DNA of 64,000 bases from Methanosarcina sp. (GTDB lineage Archaea; Halobacteriota; Methanosarcinia; Methanosarcinales; Methanosarcinaceae), in the NCBI GenBank assembly GCA_003164755.1, contig PLUB01000059.1, forward strand, positions 40,751 through 104,750, given 5' to 3'. A program made the translations under genes and the position numbers. Below, in pieces: positions 12,848 through 23,062 of the stretch; within the stretch, counting starts at the first letter, position 1; every line of letters begins with the position of its first letter. The notes under the pieces were generated by a model. The model ran no database searches, was not told the DNA's origin, and worked only from the letters and a program-made list of their open reading frames with translations.

Positions 12848-14917
12848 TCAGATCTGCAGTAAACCGGCCAATATCAGGTCTATTACCTTGATTCCTATAA
12901 AGGGAGCGATAACTCCTCCAAAACCAAAGATGATTAGGTTATAGGCAAAAAGTTTCAACGCCGACATAGACTTGAACTTTATCCCGGCTAGTGCAAGTGG
13001 TATCAGCATTGGAATGATCACAGCATTGAATATGACTGCAGAAAGAATAGCAGACTACGGTGTTGCAAGACCCATGATATTCAGCACTTCAAGCTGCGGC
13101 TATATCCCTACTAGAGCAGCAGGAATGATTGCAAAGTATTTTGCGATATCGTTAGCTATAGAAAATGTGGTCAGAGCTCCGCGAGTCATCAGGATTTGCT
13201 TACCTATCTCGACAATGTCCAGCAGTTTGGTTGTCACTATCTAGATCAATAATGTTCGAAGCTTCTCTCGCAGGCTGTGTGCCATTGTTCATAGCTACAG
13301 CTACATCGGCTTGGGCAAGAGCAGGAGCATCATTTGTTCCATCCCCTGTCATGGCCAACCATGTAGCCTTCCTTCTGGTAGTCCCTGATCATCGTGAGTT
13401 TATCTTCAGGTTTTGCTTCTGCCAAATAATCATCTACTCCAGCTTCTGCTGCAATAGTAGCAGCCGTAAGAGGATTATCTCCTGTAATCATAATAGTCTT
13501 TATTCCGATAGTGCGCAAATCTGCAAATCTCTCTCGAATACCAGTTTTTAAAATATCTTTGAGGAATATCACACCGAGGATAGTTTCATTGCAAGCGACA
13601 ACCAGCGGTGTACCTCCTTTAGATGCAATCTCATTTACTTTCGCTTTCAAATCCGACGGAACTGTGCCTCCATGCTCAAGAACGAACGTAATTATTGCAT
13701 CCGAAGCACCCTTTAGGTAGATCGTCTCACCACACTGCGCACTACTAACCCTTGTAGAGGCCGAAAATGGTGTGAAAGTGACATTCTCTGAAGAAACTGG
13801 AACTGTTCCGGTCTTTTTTTGGATGAGATCAATAATGCTTTTGCCTTCTGGAGTCTCGTCTGCAGAAAAGGAAAGCATAGCAGCTTCCATCAGATCATCA
13901 TATGACTGGCCATTTACTGGCAAAAACTCAGTTGCCTGTCGGTTACCTAAGGTAATTGTACCTGTTTTATCCAGCAGTAGGACATTTACATCTCCTGCAG
14001 CCTCGACTGCTCTTCCGGAGAGAGCGATAACATTCAACTGGAATAAACAATCCATTCCAGCTATTCCGATTGCTGATTGTAGGGCTGCAATGGTTGTGGG
14101 CGCTAAACATACGAAAAGTGCAATTAGTACTGTGAAGCTCACTGCGGAACCTCTTCCGTTTGAAGCAGCACTATACGCAGAAGCGGAGTACATGCTGGAC
14201 CACAACCTCGAGAAATACAGCTGTCAGCGAAATGAGTAGTATGCTAAGAGCTATTTCGTTAGGAGTCTTCCGTCTCTCTGCACCTTCCACCATGGAGATC
14301 ATACGATCCAAAAAAGTATGTCCTGGATCTGCAGTAATTCTGATAATTATCTCATTGGCAATAACTGTGGTTCCTCCGGTAACAGCACTCCGGTCACCAC
14401 CAGATTCACGTACAACAGGTGCTGACTCCCCAGTAATTGCGGCTTCATTAACTACTGTAACTCCCTTCACAACGTCCCCGTCCCCAGGGATTACTTTGTT
14501 TGTCCTTACAAGGACAAGATCACCTTTCTGTAGATCAGAGGAAGGTACTTCGGTGAAAAGACTATCGAAAGATTCTGAAGTGAGCTTTCGGGTAGGAACG
14601 CTGGTTCTGGACAGCCGCAGAGATGCTGCTCTGGCTTTTCCACGCCCCTCAGACAGAGCTTCCACAAAGTTGGAAAAGAGCACTGTCAGCCATAGCCAGA
14701 GAGAGATAAAGCCAATGAAAAAAGGAGACTCAGTGGTAGCAGAGAAGAAGCTGATGAGAAAACTTATAGTAGTTAGGATGCCTCCGATTTCCACTGTAAA
14801 CATTACCGGGTTTTCGATCTGCTGACGTAGGTTAAGTTTCAACACTGAACTGAGGAGTGCTTCACGAATAAGTTTCGAATCAAAAGCGCCTAAACGGGAA
14901 GATTGAGTTCGTGGCAT
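12848..14917 (-). pseudogene. kdpB: KdpB, P-type ATPase subunit, disrupted
   Basis: KdpB is the ATP-hydrolysing subunit of the Kdp high-affinity K+ pump. ATG 14917 has a GGGAGGT site. Blocks in order: membrane helices from ENPVMFTVEIGGILTTISFL, the actuator TGES loop (NEAAITGESAPVV), the phosphorylation site DKTGTIT in LLLDKTGTITLGNRQATEF, the nucleotide domain, and the hinge [20 protein letters not shown]. Frameshifts lie near 14190 and 13340, another near 13220, and stops interrupt the last membrane helices. Catalytic residues survive but no continuous protein does. It starts 2 bp after the kdpA frame ends, so the operon order is preserved. Confidence 0.9.
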
Positions 14918-14919
14918 TA

Positions 14920-16627
14920 TTAATTACCTCCCATCATAATCAGGTGTTCGATAATCTGCCCGGTGGCAAAGAGTGGGAAGAACGTGAGAGCACCTATGAT
15001 CAGGATTACTAGTATCGTCCAAGTAGCAAATGAAAACGAAGCTGTGGGAAGAGTTCCTGAACTTGATGGAACTTTTTTCTTCTGCGTCATCGATCCTGCT
15101 ATTGCTAGCATGGCAATTGACGGGATAAACCTGCCTATCAACATTGCTATGCTACCTCCAAGTGTGTAGAATGACTTTGTTGCGTCAAGCCCAGCAAAGG
15201 CACTACCGTTATTATTAGCCATGGATGCAAAGGCATATACCACTTTATAAAGTCCGTTCGGGCCTGGATTTGCCATTAAATCTCCAACTTTTGGTAGAAC
15301 CAGTGCAATACCTGAAAACAGGAGAACAAGGATTTCAGGGACAAGAACTGTTATGACGGCCATCTTCATTTCCCATGCCTCGATCTTTTTCCCGAGATAT
15401 TCAGGGACTCGTCCGATCATAAGTCCTGCAATGAAGACCGAAAGCACTATAAATCCAATCATAGTGTGGAATCCCGATCCTACTCCACCGAAGACAACCT
15501 CTCCAAGGAGGATCAGGAACATGGTCACCAAACCACCTAATGGAGTAAGTGAATCATGAGCACAGTTGACTGCTCCACATGATGTTGCCGTAGTCGATGT
15601 AGCAAAGAGTGAGGACCCAAAAAGCCCGAACCTGACGTCTTTCCCTTCCATGGATATGCCGGAAACGCCAAGTTATTTAATTAGTGGATTATCTGCCAGC
15701 TCTGCTGCATAAAGTGCACCAAATCCCAATACGAACAGAACTAACATAATACCGTAGATAACCCATCCCTCTTTCATGCTCCCGACCATCCTTCCAAAGA
15801 CTAGAGGTAGAGCTGCAGATATTATGAGTATAAGAAAAATTGATATTATGTTAGTCAAAGGCGTCGGATTTTCATATGGATGTGCAGAGTTTGCATTGAA
15901 AAATCCTCCTCCGTTAGTACCAAACTCTTTTATCGCTTCCTGGGAGGCTACTGGTCCCATTGGGATTGTCTGAGATCCTGGCTGGCCATACCCTGTGACG
16001 TTTACGTAAGGATCTATATTCTGAATGACGCCCTGGGAAACAAGCACGAGAGCAAAAATAAAAGATATTGGAAGAAGGATGTAAAGAGTGCAGCGAGTCA
16101 TACCTACCCAAAAGTTGCCAATCTTATAGGGTAGACTGGCGGGTTATACCTCGCATCACTGCAATTGCTATGCATATGCCTGTAGCTGCGGAAAGGAAGT
16201 TCTGGACTGTAAACCCAGCCATCTGGGTAAAATAACTTGCTGCCGTTTCACCGCTATAGACCTGCCAATTTGTGTTAGTGACAAAACTAGATGCAGTATT
16301 GATGGCAAAACTCAGGTTAAAAGAGCCAAATTTTTGTGGGTTTAGAGGCAGTGAATCTTGAAGAAGAAGAATTAGAAAGAGAATTACAAAACCTATACCA
16401 TTAAAAATGAGCATATCCCGCGAGTAACCACGCCAGCCCTCTTCTTTATCAGGATCAGTATCTATTAATCTGTATATTACTTTCTCGAGATGGCCAGGAA
16501 TTCCTCTTGACAAATTTCCGTCAAAAACACGAACAATGAAACTGCTAAAAGGAAATGCCACCCCAGTTACGAGAACCAAAAAAAGGATTAGCATTATACT
16601 ATCTGAAAGTATATCTTGTGTTATCAT
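14920..16627 (-). pseudogene. kdpA: KdpA, potassium-binding channel subunit, disrupted
   Basis: KdpA is the K+-selective channel-like subunit in the membrane. The first selectivity-filter region (TNTNWQVYSGETAASYFTQM) and the second ([20 protein letters not shown]) are present, and the family end is intact. ATG 16627 (MITQDILSD) is chosen; TTG 16645 is an alternative. A one-base frameshift near 16130 splits RGITRQST from [20 protein letters not shown]. An in-frame TAA at 15673-15675 interrupts NPLIK-stop-LGVSG, probably from CAA. Total length (about 570 codons) equals the normal family size, so decay is by point changes and not deletion. Confidence 0.9.
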
Positions 16628-16645
16628 CTTATGATCAAATACCAA

Positions 16646-18516: not shown

Positions 18517-18951
18517 ATGCAATATAATATGGATCATAGAAGCCATTCAGTGTATTCACTCCATTATCATTTTGTACAATGTATAAAATATCGAAGGGGA
18601 GTACTTTGTAATTCATTAATAATTGACTTCTTAAAAAGAAAAATCCATAATATAAGTAAAACGTATGATGTTGAGGTACTGAGCATAGAATGTGACAAAG
18701 ATCATTTTCATATGATTTTCACTTCAAAACCAACATTAGACATTCCAAAATATATCAATACTTTAAAAACTATAACTTCAAGAGAAATAAGAAAAGAATT
18801 TCCTGAAATTAAATTACTATTATGGGAAGAGACCTTTTGGTCAAGATCATATTTCATAGCTACAACGGGCCAAGTGACTTTAGATACATTAAACAAATAC
18901 ATAGACAGTCAAAATGAATCTAACTGTGAAAGTAAAAATATATCCAACTGA
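18517..18951 (+). CDS. tnpA: IS200/IS605 family Y1 transposase TnpA
   Basis: The 144-residue protein has the complete Y1 HUH transposase layout: SVYSLHYHFVQCIKYRRGVL at the N-terminus, the HUH motif in ECDKDHFHMIFTSKP, then LLLWEETFWSRSYFIATTGQ, and the catalytic tyrosine in TLNKYIDSQ. It cleaves and joins single-stranded DNA at the element ends (peel-and-paste). Length is normal for the family. ATG 18517 begins right at the conserved N-terminus, with no strong ribosome-binding site seen. This is the only transposase gene in the window that is not visibly damaged, although its tnpB partner is dead. Confidence 0.9.
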   Translation: MQYNMDHRSHSVYSLHYHFVQCIKYRRGVLCNSLIIDFLKRKIHNISKTYDVEVLSIECDKDHFHMIFTSKPTLDIPKYINTLKTITSREIRKEFPEIKLLLWEETFWSRSYFIATTGQVTLDTLNKYIDSQNESNCESKNISN

Positions 18952-19255
18952 AGAACAAAAGGTGTTTTATAGAGTATATCGAATCAATGTAGATACCTCC
19001 ATAATCTTTTTTCCCACTATAGAAAAGAATCCACGAAGCTCAAAAAAGAGAAAAAGATATTGAACAACATAAAAAATTTTCTAAATCTAAAAAAGATAAT
19101 CCTAAACTCAGAAGAGTATATTCTACGGTACTTAAATAGGTTCTTAAAAAACTTGATAATAATTATAAATCCTTTTTTGCTCTTTGGGAAATAGTTATAA
19201 GAACGCCAGAACTCCGAAGTAAAGATTATTTCATAACTATTTCTTATAATTAAAG
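18914..19255 (+). pseudogene. tnpB: TnpB remnant of the IS605 element
   Basis: ATG 18914 lies inside the end of tnpA and opens MNLTVKVKIYPTEEQKVFYR, the standard TnpB N-terminus. After about 40 codons stops and frameshifts appear, and the RuvC and zinc-ribbon regions are gone. TnpB is an RNA-guided nuclease linked to IS retention; this copy cannot make it. Confidence 0.75.
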
Positions 19256-19498: not shown

Positions 19499-19840
19499 TC
19501 AGGTCTTTTTATCGTATTCATAAAATATAATTTTAATTTTTTCTTCTGTAATCAATCCTTGGGTAATTATTTCATCTAATTTTGGTTTTATTTTATCAAT
19601 TTTTTCTTCGAGATCAGCTATTTCGAGAAGTATTGGCAAGTCAGTAGATAACTGCAATATAGATGTGGTATGGAAATGGCTGTGTTTTCCAAAACCTGCA
19701 ATGCCCCTAAAAACAGTTACTTCTGCCATCCCATCATTTTTAAGCATCTCAAGTATATGTATATACAACGACTTGCCTTTATACCTATCAGATTCTCCAA
19801 TGAATATTCACAATAATATAGCCTGAGATTCCTTTTTCAT
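19499..19840 (-). pseudogene. DUF190 protein with in-frame TGA at codon 11
   Basis: The frame from ATG 19840 (GAGGGA site upstream) reads MKKESQAILL, then TGA at 19808-19810, then IFIGESDRYKGKSLYIHILE and MAEVTVFRGIAGFGKHSHFH, all DUF190 hallmarks. Relatives have arginine at the stop, so CGA has become TGA. DUF190 proteins resemble PII-like proteins and are commonly encoded beside crcB. Here the first codons overlap the 3' end of crcB, so the two genes form one unit under the fluoride riboswitch. Re-initiation at ATG 19762 (MYIHILEMLK would start one codon group earlier) could still give a shortened protein lacking the first strand. Confidence 0.75.
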
Positions 19841-20234
19841 CTAATTCCCTCAGCATATACGTGCCAAAGTTCAAAGCCACAATTTTCCGTAAATATACTG
19901 CAAACATTGAAAATAATACTGTCGCCATCAAATTTATTACCATCAGTGTTAGTTTTGAATCATCGAGTAATCTGAATGACTTATAACTAAATGTTGATAA
20001 TGTTGTATAGCCACCAATTAATCCAATTGTCAAAAATATTCTGGTTTCTTCGCCAAAGAATCCTTGATATTCAGAAAGGTACATTATTAAACCTAAAAGG
20101 AAACTGCTACTAACGTTTACAACCAAAGTACCAACAGGGAAATTAACAAAATTGTTCTGTATCCATCCACTTAAAGTATATCTCAAGATAGAGTCTATGA
20201 AACCGCCTATGCCTACTAATAGAAAAGTGTACAA
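19788..20234 (-). CDS. crcB: CrcB/Fluc fluoride exporter
   Basis: Four membrane segments and Fluc motifs identify a fluoride channel that expels F- from the cytoplasm: GIGGFIDSILRYTLSGWIQN (family GAxxRY region), PVGTLVVNVSSSFLLGLIMY with the conserved Asn, and GLIGGYTTLSTFSYKSFRLL, the TTFSTF-type region. The start is TTG 20234, 8 nt after GAGG. At 148 residues it is about 20 longer than usual; the extra tail overlaps the DUF190 frame, which suggests the original stop moved. Fluc works as a dual-topology or paired dimer; only one copy is visible. A fluoride riboswitch lies 20 bp upstream and should control it. Confidence 0.88.
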   Translation of the reverse strand: MYTFLLVGIGGFIDSILRYTLSGWIQNNFVNFPVGTLVVNVSSSFLLGLIMYLSEYQGFFGEETRIFLTIGLIGGYTTLSTFSYKSFRLLDDSKLTLMVINLMATVLFSMFAVYLRKIVALNFGTYMLRELDEKGISGYIIVNIHWRI

Positions 20235-20254
20235 GTCAAAAGCCTCGATTAGTT

Positions 20255-20315
20255 TATAGAAGTCATCAGCATAAGCTATTTAGACTTAAGAGTCTAGGCG
20301 GACTTCATCACCTCT
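20255..20315 (-). promoter_or_regulatory. Fluoride riboswitch (crcB motif)
   Basis: The minus strand carries GGTGATGAAGTCCGCCT, a hairpin TAGACT-CTTA-AGTCTA, then AATAGCTTATGCTGATGACTTCTA. This matches the crcB RNA consensus: a GGxGAUG-x-GUxCGCC element, then AGC...GCUGAUG, with GAAGUC pairing to GACUUC and AGGUG to CGCCU. It directly precedes crcB and DUF190, the expected regulon. The ribosome-binding site GAGG is about 9 nt past the aptamer, so control of translation is likely; no terminator follows. An AT-rich TTATTTATTTAA at about 20338-20349 may be the promoter. Confidence 0.88.
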
Positions 20316-20379
20316 CAAAAAGAAATTTACCAACATTAAATAAATAACTTATGCGAGTATGAGTAGGTCATTATTATTC

Positions 20380-21084: not shown

Positions 21085-23062
21085 CTAGGGGTGGGTATAG
21101 ACAAAGGCTCCATGTACTGAAGTAGTTGAATTAAGTTGAACGTTGCTCAATGGTGTACATAGAATATGTAAGCAGGTTTTCTCCAAGTAATTATATGAGT
21201 TTTTTTGTGAAATCTTTATCAAAATATTTATTGTAGCGAGCATTGAATCTGTACCAACTGCATTGCTTACTATCAGATTAACTGTATAGACTCCTGCTGC
21301 AAAATAAGTATTCTTTGGATTCAGCCCAGTTGAAATAGTTCAGTCTCCACCGTTCCATCCATATCCTGTGGCATTTGTCTATAGGTCTGTAAATTGAACC
21401 GTTCGGGGAACATAACCATTGGTGACATGGGTACTGAACTTAGCTACAGGAAGACCTTTTATAGAAAGACCTTGTGGATCAGTAAATGCTTTGATGCACA
21501 CATTAGTATTTGAGTAACCTAGCTCTGTTGTTATATCGATCCAGATGTTTCCACCCGGATTACAAAACTTTCTGATGCATTTGCTTTTGCTTGACTACTG
21601 TAACCAGAGATTGGCATTTCCACAGCAATTGGATAATTGTATAAAGGGTTTATAAGCTCCAGTACTACGGAAAATTTTTGGCCGGCGTTGAGCTTAACTC
21701 CGGAATTAAGGGGAACTGTATGATAGCCTGCATTTGGAATTGTTCCATTCTGGGTAAAAGCAGGAGCTTTTTGACTAATGGGATTGGACCCTGTATTATT
21801 AAGATATTAATTATATAACTATAGTTTAGGTCTGTCGTGTAGAAATTTATTGCTTTGAGAACTTCGTTAGATTTTGCAGTAAAGATATTTGCACCCCAGC
21901 CAGTCGTGGGATTAGTTTGAGATATGTTAATTTCCGGATCCATTCAAGTGGATCGTATTGGTAAATGTTTGTATAATCATTAGAATTTTCAGCCACGAAG
22001 AGTGTATTCTTATCATATCCTAAATTAGAATTATAATAGGAAACAGAGAAATACCCATTATTATTGTTTACATTACCACAATCTGCCACAGTTGCACCCC
22101 AGCTATTTTTTTGATAAACGCTCCATCTCCGGATGGAGTTGGGGAGAAATTGTTCTTACTAAAAGAGTCTTCACAGCCTACAATGGTCACTGCATGGTCA
22201 GAAGGTGTTGTTCAGCTATAGTAATAACGTATGTGTTTTGGTTATAACTAGTAGTATTGTGGGATCAGAATACATTGCATTAGTAACTGCTCCATAATTC
22301 AGAATTGCCTTTTTGATTTCCAGATTGTCCGTAGAACCATTTCTGCTCGGAAAAAAGGTTACATTTTGTACATGTTTATGTACAGGAAGGCCTATCTCAT
22401 TGGACAAAAAGCTTGATGTAGCACTATAAGGGCCATCGCTGGTGTTAACAGGTCCTGTCCAGCGAATCTGGTAGGCAATTGACATCGGAAAATCGCCCCC
22501 GTCGTTGGGGCCTCGATCAAAATCTTGCGGGCCATTTGCAGAAGAAAGTAGGTTTTAAATATTATTTTCTGAAAAGCTCCAGGTTTCTCTTGGCATTAAA
22601 TATGATTCAAGGGCTCCATAAGTTGCAAATGTCCAGCACTTACCTGCATTACCCTGATTTTCCACAGGGGTTACCCTTTTCAGAATTCCTAAGTCATAGG
22701 AAGTTGGAGTAGATGTGTTTGCTGAAGCATATACATCTGCGACTGAAGTATGCTTGAGATGACTAAGGTTCACAGGTATGGATGCGAAGCCAAATGTGTT
22801 TCCAACAGAGGAATGTGCCGTTTTAGAGACATATTTGTTATTCAGGTATTTGGTAAATGTAGGATTTTCTGGTGCAAGTCCAACCTTTGGAGAAAATTCA
22901 GTTTTGTTTACACCATTTTTTTAAATAAATTTATGATCAGTAGGCACGGATATTGGTTTATTTTTTTCTGAAAATCCTGCAGATGCCATTGCTATTGATG
23001 AACCTATCACCAAAAATAAAACCAGGATTTCAGTGAAAATTACTAATTCTTTTACGATATTT
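21085..23062 (-). pseudogene. Secreted papain-family (C1A) peptidase with PKD domain, disrupted
   Basis: An N-terminal hydrophobic signal (ELVIFTEILVLFLVIGSSIA) is followed by a linker, then the peptidase. The catalytic Cys is in TPVENQGNAGKCWTFATYGA, the His in HAVTIVGCED, and the Asn in KKNSWG. A beta-rich lectin-like region and a C-terminal PKD domain follow (PRTVQFTDLQTNATGYGWNG, then TYFAAGVYTVNLIVSNA). Such proteins act at the cell surface of Methanosarcina. A stop interrupts the linker near 22920, several frameshifts and stops lie at 22550, 22205, 21840 and 21560, and no ATG is present at the expected start. All catalytic residues survive in pieces. Confidence 0.8.

What the first reader, a model, noticed from the sequence alone, without database searches (positions are those of the whole stretch)
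19499..20350. Fluoride riboswitch controlling crcB and a nonsense-bearing DUF190 gene in an archaeon
The minus-strand leader carries the crcB RNA core (GGUGAUGAAGUCCGCC and GCUGAUGACUUC) with pairings intact, just before a Fluc channel gene with a TTG start. The DUF190 gene overlapping the crcB end has TGA for the expected Arg codon 11. Seen: RNA core, motifs and stop. Known: crcB RNA senses fluoride. Inferred: an intact sensor driving a partly broken two-gene unit, probably at translation since no terminator is present and the RBS is close.
Basis: partly seen in the sequence, partly recalled or inferred. Interest (0 to 1): 0.72.

Follow-up and report, generated by a model that had tools for sequence, protein, structure and literature searches.

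The report
Fluoride sensor over a decaying exporter
A methane-making archaeon carries an RNA of the fluoride-riboswitch family, likely a fluoride sensor, in front of two fluoride-defence genes that are both altered: the channel gene has a pore change predicted to silence it, and the second gene has an early in-frame stop codon.

Summary
The minus-strand leader at 20256-20314 is a crcB/fluoride-family RNA: Rfam scores it just under its cut-off (32.7 vs 34 bits), but a model built from 19 related leaders, none from this genome or from its relative G090, gives 75.9 bits, E 1.6e-21. A TTG-started crcB follows; DUF190 overlaps its end and has TGA at codon 11.

Added here: (1) CrcB is open but has Lys where Fluc-Bpe has pore residue Glu88; E88K abolished fluoride efflux there, so the channel is probably silent too. 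(2) The genome has a second crcB-DUF190 unit with the reverse damage (sensor core mutated, pore Glu kept, DUF190 stopped by TAG), and the relative G090 (Methanosarcina fen_51) has two more units, each damaged differently. (3) The aptamer's linker/P3 strand is complementary to crcB codons 8-12; pair counts and synonymous-codon tests give modest support for a coding-region expression platform in Methanosarcinaceae, while ensemble folds of the window itself do not.

Archaeal fluoride riboswitches, including translational ones, are known, so this is a new member of a known kind in a decaying locus. Nothing was tested at the bench.

The parts
20335..20344 (-). TATA-like box (TTTATTTAAT), centre 27 nt before P1
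   Evidence: inferred promoter
20309..20312 (-). aptamer P1 5' strand GGUG
20301..20306 (-). pseudoknot 5' strand GAAGUC
20297..20300 (-). aptamer P1 3' strand CGCC
20281..20296 (-). extra hairpin UAGACU-CUUA-AGUCUA inserted after P1
20269..20276 (-). P3, GC-UUAU-GC
20257..20268 (-). core UGAUG, pseudoknot 3' strand GACUUC and linchpin U (position names recalled or from cited papers)
20243..20246 (-). GAGG, likely Shine-Dalgarno, 8 nt before the TTG
19788..20234 (-). crcB (Fluc) gene, TTG start, 148 codons open
20200..20213 (-). crcB codons 8-12 (GGCAUAGGCGGUUU), complementary to the aptamer linker/P3 strand
20193..20195 (-). GAC, Asp14 where 56 of 56 other heads have Gly
19980..19982 (-). AAG, Lys85, equivalent to Fluc-Bpe Glu88
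19499..19840 (-). DUF190 frame from ATG 19840, interrupted by TGA
19808..19810 (-). in-frame TGA, codon 11

Best explanation
This is a fluoride-riboswitch-family leader RNA, likely a translational ON switch, in front of a crcB channel gene whose pore glutamate codon reads lysine (a change predicted to silence the channel) and a DUF190 gene cut by an in-frame TGA. Shown by sequence: the aptamer core (P1, pseudoknot, P3, UGAUG and the linchpin U), GAGG and TTG just downstream, the Lys85 and Asp14 codons, the TGA, and a second unit in the genome with reciprocal damage. Inferred: with fluoride and Mg2+ the aptamer docks; without fluoride its strands are free to pair with the early crcB message (P1/pseudoknot strand with the GAGG-start region or with codons 9-13, or linker/P3 with codons 8-12) and so hinder initiation. 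Inferred: the unit was duplicated in this Methanosarcina lineage and its copies are decaying, so the surviving sensor now probably drives no working exporter on its own.
For: Aptamer. TTG/GAGG geometry, no terminator. Lys at the E88 position: TLSTFSYK, third residue after the F of STF; aligned to Glu in the three solved chains shown; Glu 38, Gln 17, Lys 1 of 56 other CrcB heads; E88K in Fluc-Bpe <100 ions/s, while Ala, Asp, Gln were tolerated (PMC8315801 passages). DUF190 stop. Second unit on C4: core UGAUG reads UACCG, crcB keeps Glu, DUF190 TAG at codon 18. G090: one unit with core and start changed and DUF190 TAG, the other with crcB TAA and P1 changed but DUF190 open. Stops in the DUF190 of 3 of these 4 units, in the crcB of 1 of 4. 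Not general assembly noise: 23 of 24 ABC ATPase domains of this genome have no stop. DUF190 omega 0.23 for window vs G090C109 against 0.00, 0.04, 0.03 in three pairs from intact units. Archaeal translational precedent: text and citation in PMC11077080.
Against: No ligand or expression data. In one search the window's predicted GAGG and start openness do not rise on docking (0.22 to 0.22; 0.34 to 0.27); over 19 leaders GAGG openness rises on average from 0.24 to 0.38 but falls in three. The favoured fold depends on how much coding sequence is included. The linker reads UA where relatives read CC, so ligand binding is uncertain. crcB still shows low omega against G090C109 (0.11), and window vs C4 gives omega 0.26 for crcB and 0.18 for DUF190, opposite to faster DUF190 decay. 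The Lys may be recent, or tolerated in a heterodimer with the C4 protein. Single-base calls come from one assembly.
Confidence: 0.6

Rival explanations
1. The whole unit is a relic: the RNA keeps the fluoride-riboswitch sequence but no longer switches, because the linker changed and the genes it served are damaged.
For: Linker UA unlike 24 and 25 of 25 other leaders; the other three units of G000 and G090 have damaged aptamers; Lys85, Asp14 and TGA in the genes; no predicted opening of the window's start region on docking.
Against: P1, pseudoknot, P3, UGAUG and linchpin U are all kept in the window copy alone of the four; crcB omega 0.11 against G090C109.
Confidence: 0.25
2. The unit works as it stands: the TGA or the Lys codon is an assembly error or strain variant, or an 89-codon DUF190 started at TTG 19768 and a Lys-bearing channel are functional.
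For: crcB and DUF190 still show omega below 0.3 in window comparisons with G090C109 and C4; the frame after the stop still scores 91.4 bits to DUF190.
Against: Independent stops in the DUF190 of three of four units in two assemblies; E88K not tolerated in Fluc-Bpe; stops rare in ABC domains of this genome, 1 of 24.
Confidence: 0.12
3. Within the ON-switch reading, the platform is only local: the P1/pseudoknot strand GAAGUCCGCCUAGA pairs with UCGAGGCUUUUGACUU, covering GAGG and the TTG, and the match to codons 8-12 is a by-product of the common aptamer AACCGC and the Gly-Gly codons.
For: Minimum-energy fold of the 106-nt leader and of transcripts ending up to codon 7; AACCGC is common in aptamers of other archaea (23 of 28 matches); the codon helix has probability 0.01 in the longer window fold.
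Against: This local pairing is weak or absent in several relatives by inspection; longer windows fold otherwise; codon choice favours pairing in 21 of 21 leaders.
Confidence: 0.3

Closest known systems
crcB / fluoride riboswitch, Rfam RF01734 (Weinberg 2010, PMC2864571; B. cereus and T. petrophila studies)
   Same: P1, six-pair pseudoknot, P3, UGAUG and linchpin positions; leader of a Fluc gene
   Different: hairpin inserted after P1, two-pair P3, UA in the linker, no terminator, 1.3 bits under the Rfam cut-off
Translational fluoride riboswitch of hyperthermophilic archaea (Speed 2018; seen only as a sentence and citation in PMC11077080)
   Same: archaeal, fluoride family, proposed control of translation
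   Different: untested here, and the controlled genes look damaged
Fluc channels (PDB 5a40, 5a43, 5kbn and relatives; the names Fluc-Bpe and Fluc-Ec2 for these entries are recalled)
   Same: PF02537 match, GTLxxN and STF motifs
   Different: Lys at the Glu88 position, Asp in the GGxxG motif
DUF190 / UPF0166 proteins PH1503 (2dcl) and TM0021 (1o51)
   Same: sequence match over the part after the stop
   Different: in-frame TGA at codon 11

Membership tests
Fluoride riboswitch RF01734 | covariance-model score at or above Rfam's gathering score | tested here: not met
   32.7 vs 34 bits, E 6.6e-7. 75.9 bits to a model of related leaders; 17 of 111 genomes of the taxonomic family have an RF01734 match over the cut-off
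Fluoride riboswitch RF01734 | P1, pseudoknot and P3 with conserved core bases | tested here: met
Fluoride riboswitch RF01734 | 5' leader of a fluoride-related gene | tested here: met
   TTG of crcB lies 15 nt past the Rfam match
Fluoride riboswitch RF01734 | binds fluoride and changes expression | not testable with these tools
   needs in-line probing and a reporter
Fluc/CrcB fluoride channel | PF02537 over its cut-off | tested here: met
   82.9 vs 32.9 bits
Fluc/CrcB fluoride channel | Glu, Asp or Gln at position 88 | tested here: not met
   Lys85; PMC8315801 gives >85% Glu, ~10% Asp, ~5% Gln
Fluc/CrcB fluoride channel | conducts fluoride | not testable with these tools
   needs efflux assay
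DUF190 | PF02641 over its cut-off | tested here: met
   91.4 vs 23.4 bits for 19499-19768
DUF190 | uninterrupted frame over the domain | tested here: not met
   TGA at codon 11

The most novel reading that the evidence does not exclude
In Methanosarcinaceae the first codons of the fluoride channel gene are themselves the off-switch: codons 8-12 (Gly-Ile-Gly-Gly-Phe) form a 14-pair helix with the aptamer's linker and P3, so a protein motif doubles as the riboswitch's expression platform, and the head of crcB travels with the aptamer when it is recruited in front of pyrophosphatase.
Probability: 0.25. Interest if true: 0.65.

Novelty: new member of a known kind. Interest (0 to 1): 0.4.

Why it matters
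It is a natural case where a fluoride sensor seems to have outlived the exporter it controls, with a reciprocally damaged unit in the same genome, so the order in which sensor, channel and DUF190 are lost can be read from sequence. DUF190 sits beside crcB in many Methanosarcina genomes, and the paper searches made here (listings only) returned no study linking it to fluoride. If the codon-pairing idea holds, an archaeal riboswitch would use coding sequence as its platform, which a synonymous-codon experiment can test directly.

Tried and rejected
Pyrrolysine read-through was considered for the TAG stops of other units and set aside: the window stop is TGA and the stops lie at different codons. 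Base errors as the general cause were tested with ABC ATPase domains: 1 of 24 with a stop in this genome, 1 of 20 in G090, 0 of 39 in G091, 1 of 68 in G097; rejected as a general cause, though the individual bases stay unverified. The extra hairpin was first thought to be limited to Methanosarcinaceae: 28 pattern matches in the 29 best outside loci have 2-6 nt there (the pattern allowed no more than 6). Fifteen longer or weaker outside matches were then fetched; 7 could be parsed: L165 (G142) has a perfect UUGGC-UUAU-GCCAA at the same place and L151, L153, L154 inserts of similar length, so exclusivity was dropped. Sigma-70 promoter matches do not bear on an archaeon. A weak RF01734 match at C53 (21.8 bits) was not found by R1 and was dropped. 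GAGG opening as the switch read-out was weak and uneven. The ANME-3 relative (L112) shows no clear P1.

Rows dropped: of 26 leaders, 7 were left out of the 19-row alignment A1 (G052 contig end; G041a, G068a, G070a without the crcB motif; G078 identical to G099 in that stretch; G088b and G090C38 decayed). Five of the 26 could not enter. R1 left out the four G000/G090 leaders on purpose and three exact duplicates. In one search the two crcB comparisons with G090C38 were out of frame and are not used.

Full report
Observation. Rfam does not list the RNA at its gathering threshold but gives RF01734 at 20250-20321, 32.7 bits against 34, E 6.6e-7 in 1.3 kb. The insert and the short P3 probably cause the shortfall. 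A covariance model made from 19 leaders of other Methanosarcinaceae has one match in the window at E <= 1, 75.9 bits, E 1.6e-21. In the whole genome it has two strong matches, the window and contig C4 (63.0 bits), and one at E 0.08.

Anatomy. P1 is GGUG/CGCC, the pseudoknot GAAGUC/GACUUC, P3 GC-UUAU-GC, followed by UGAUG and the linchpin U. In 19 leaders 95.3% of the cells of this structure pair, against 27-48% when partners are slid. A hairpin sits between P1 and the A-rich linker; it folds in 24 of the 25 leaders printed and has one pair with a two-sided change. It is not exclusive to the family: G142 outside it has a perfect one, while 28 matches in the 29 best-scoring outside loci have 2-6 nt there, by a pattern that allowed at most 6. 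The window's linker reads AAAUAGC; of the other 25 leaders, 24 have C at the first changed position and 25 have C at the second. A TATA-like box is centred 27 nt before P1, so transcription probably starts near the aptamer (inferred). GAGG ends 8 nt before the TTG.

The genes. CrcB is PF02537 at 82.9 bits. Against 56 other distinct CrcB heads in the loci fetched, the window has Asp at a position that is Gly in 56 of 56 and Lys at a position that is Glu in 38, Gln in 17 and Lys in 1. Counting from the Fluc-Bpe residues named in PMC8315801 (F82, S83, T84, F85), this Lys is residue 88; in the three alignments shown it also stands on Glu. In Fluc-Bpe, Ala, Asp and Gln at 88 were tolerated but not Lys (PMC8315801, passages seen). 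A silent channel is predicted, not shown. DUF190 matches PH1503 and TM0021. Its codon 11 is TGA where 12 of the 13 other rows printed have Arg.

Copies. The genome has a second unit on C4. There the sensor core reads UACCG instead of UGAUG, CrcB keeps Glu but has Ser at a Phe found in 55 of 56 others, and DUF190 has TAG at codon 18. A U41A change made the B. cereus riboswitch unresponsive (PMC11077080 passage), so the C4 sensor, changed at 40 and 41, is probably dead (inferred). It has one unit with a changed core, CTG in place of the start and TAG in DUF190, and another with P1 changed and TAA in crcB but an open DUF190. Omega for window against G090C109 is 0.23 for DUF190 and 0.11 for crcB; three DUF190 pairs from intact units give 0.00, 0.04 and 0.03. 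Against this, window vs C4 gives 0.18 for DUF190 and 0.26 for crcB, and intact crcB pairs range from 0.04 to 0.22; differences are few, so these numbers are rough. Of 24 ABC ATPase domains in the genome 23 have no stop, which speaks against base errors as the general cause. The three CLC matches of the genome also carry stops, one of them a short match at a contig end.

How it would work. No terminator is present. In RNA folds the aptamer strands pair with the early message in several ways: P1/pseudoknot strand with the GAGG-start region (for ends up to codon 7), linker/P3 with codons 8-12, or P1/pseudoknot strand with codons 9-13. For the linker/P3-codon helix, 92.9% of cells pair in 19 leaders against 29-47% slid, with one pair changed on both sides in two rows. 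Natural codons give a stronger duplex than the synonymous mean in 21 of 21 leaders and lie in the best 5% in 11; for the window 0.1% of 1000 recodings do as well. In a whole-ensemble test 17 of 19 are on the expected side, mean z -0.98, window -2.1. The P3 loop is nearly fixed (mean 0.19 bit) while the extra hairpin's loop varies (1.25 bit). crcB paralogues without the RNA use mixed Gly codons and other residues in place of Ile. Against: the rows are related; in the longer folds the codon helix has mean probability 0.35 over 19 leaders and 0.01 in the window; GAGG openness on docking rises on average from 0.24 to 0.38 but not in the window; and AACCGC is a general aptamer feature, 23 of 28 outside matches. 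I commit to translational control as the likely mode and give the codon platform 0.25.

Related leaders. In five leaders the same aptamer stands before other fluoride-sensitive enzymes: enolase in G041a, G068a, G070a and inorganic pyrophosphatase in G088b and G103, the two pyrophosphatase ones with a broken crcB head in between. Enolase and pyrophosphatase behind fluoride riboswitches are known (PMC11139923 passages).

Known background. The crcB motif was reported in bacteria and archaea in 2010 (PMC2864571 passages), in Thermococcus transcripts (PMC4247193 passages), and as a translational inducible system in hyperthermophilic archaea (sentence and citation in PMC11077080; that paper was not read). 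The finding is a new member in a decaying setting; the search for fluoride riboswitch plus Methanosarcina listed one unrelated paper.

Noticed in passing
L018, L016, L015, L043, L028: The Methanosarcinaceae fluoride aptamer precedes enolase (three loci) or inorganic pyrophosphatase (two loci), the latter with a broken crcB head in between, as if leader plus crcB start were copied as a module.
   Followed up: partly
G360:C16:70098-82052, G427:C3:201740-214613, G127:C1:2421352-2434128, G222:C5:54775-67971: Clusters of several fluoride aptamers on both strands within about 12-13 kb in some Halobacteriota.
   Followed up: no
window 13330-16645 (-): kdpA is split into three ORFs (PF03814; one frameshift and one in-frame stop by ORF spacing), and the neighbouring ORFs that look like the P-type ATPase subunit are split too.
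   Followed up: partly
window 21665-22773 (-): Pieces of a broken papain-like protease gene with a lectin-like domain.
   Followed up: partly
window 18517-19063 (+): IS200-type Y1 transposase about 0.5 kb from the DUF190 end, followed by a 49-codon ORF that resembles a TnpB start to the eye but has no Pfam match.
   Followed up: partly
G000:C4:18717-19733: A CLC channel gene with one in-frame TGA lies near the second crcB unit; the three CLC matches of the genome carry stops.
   Followed up: partly
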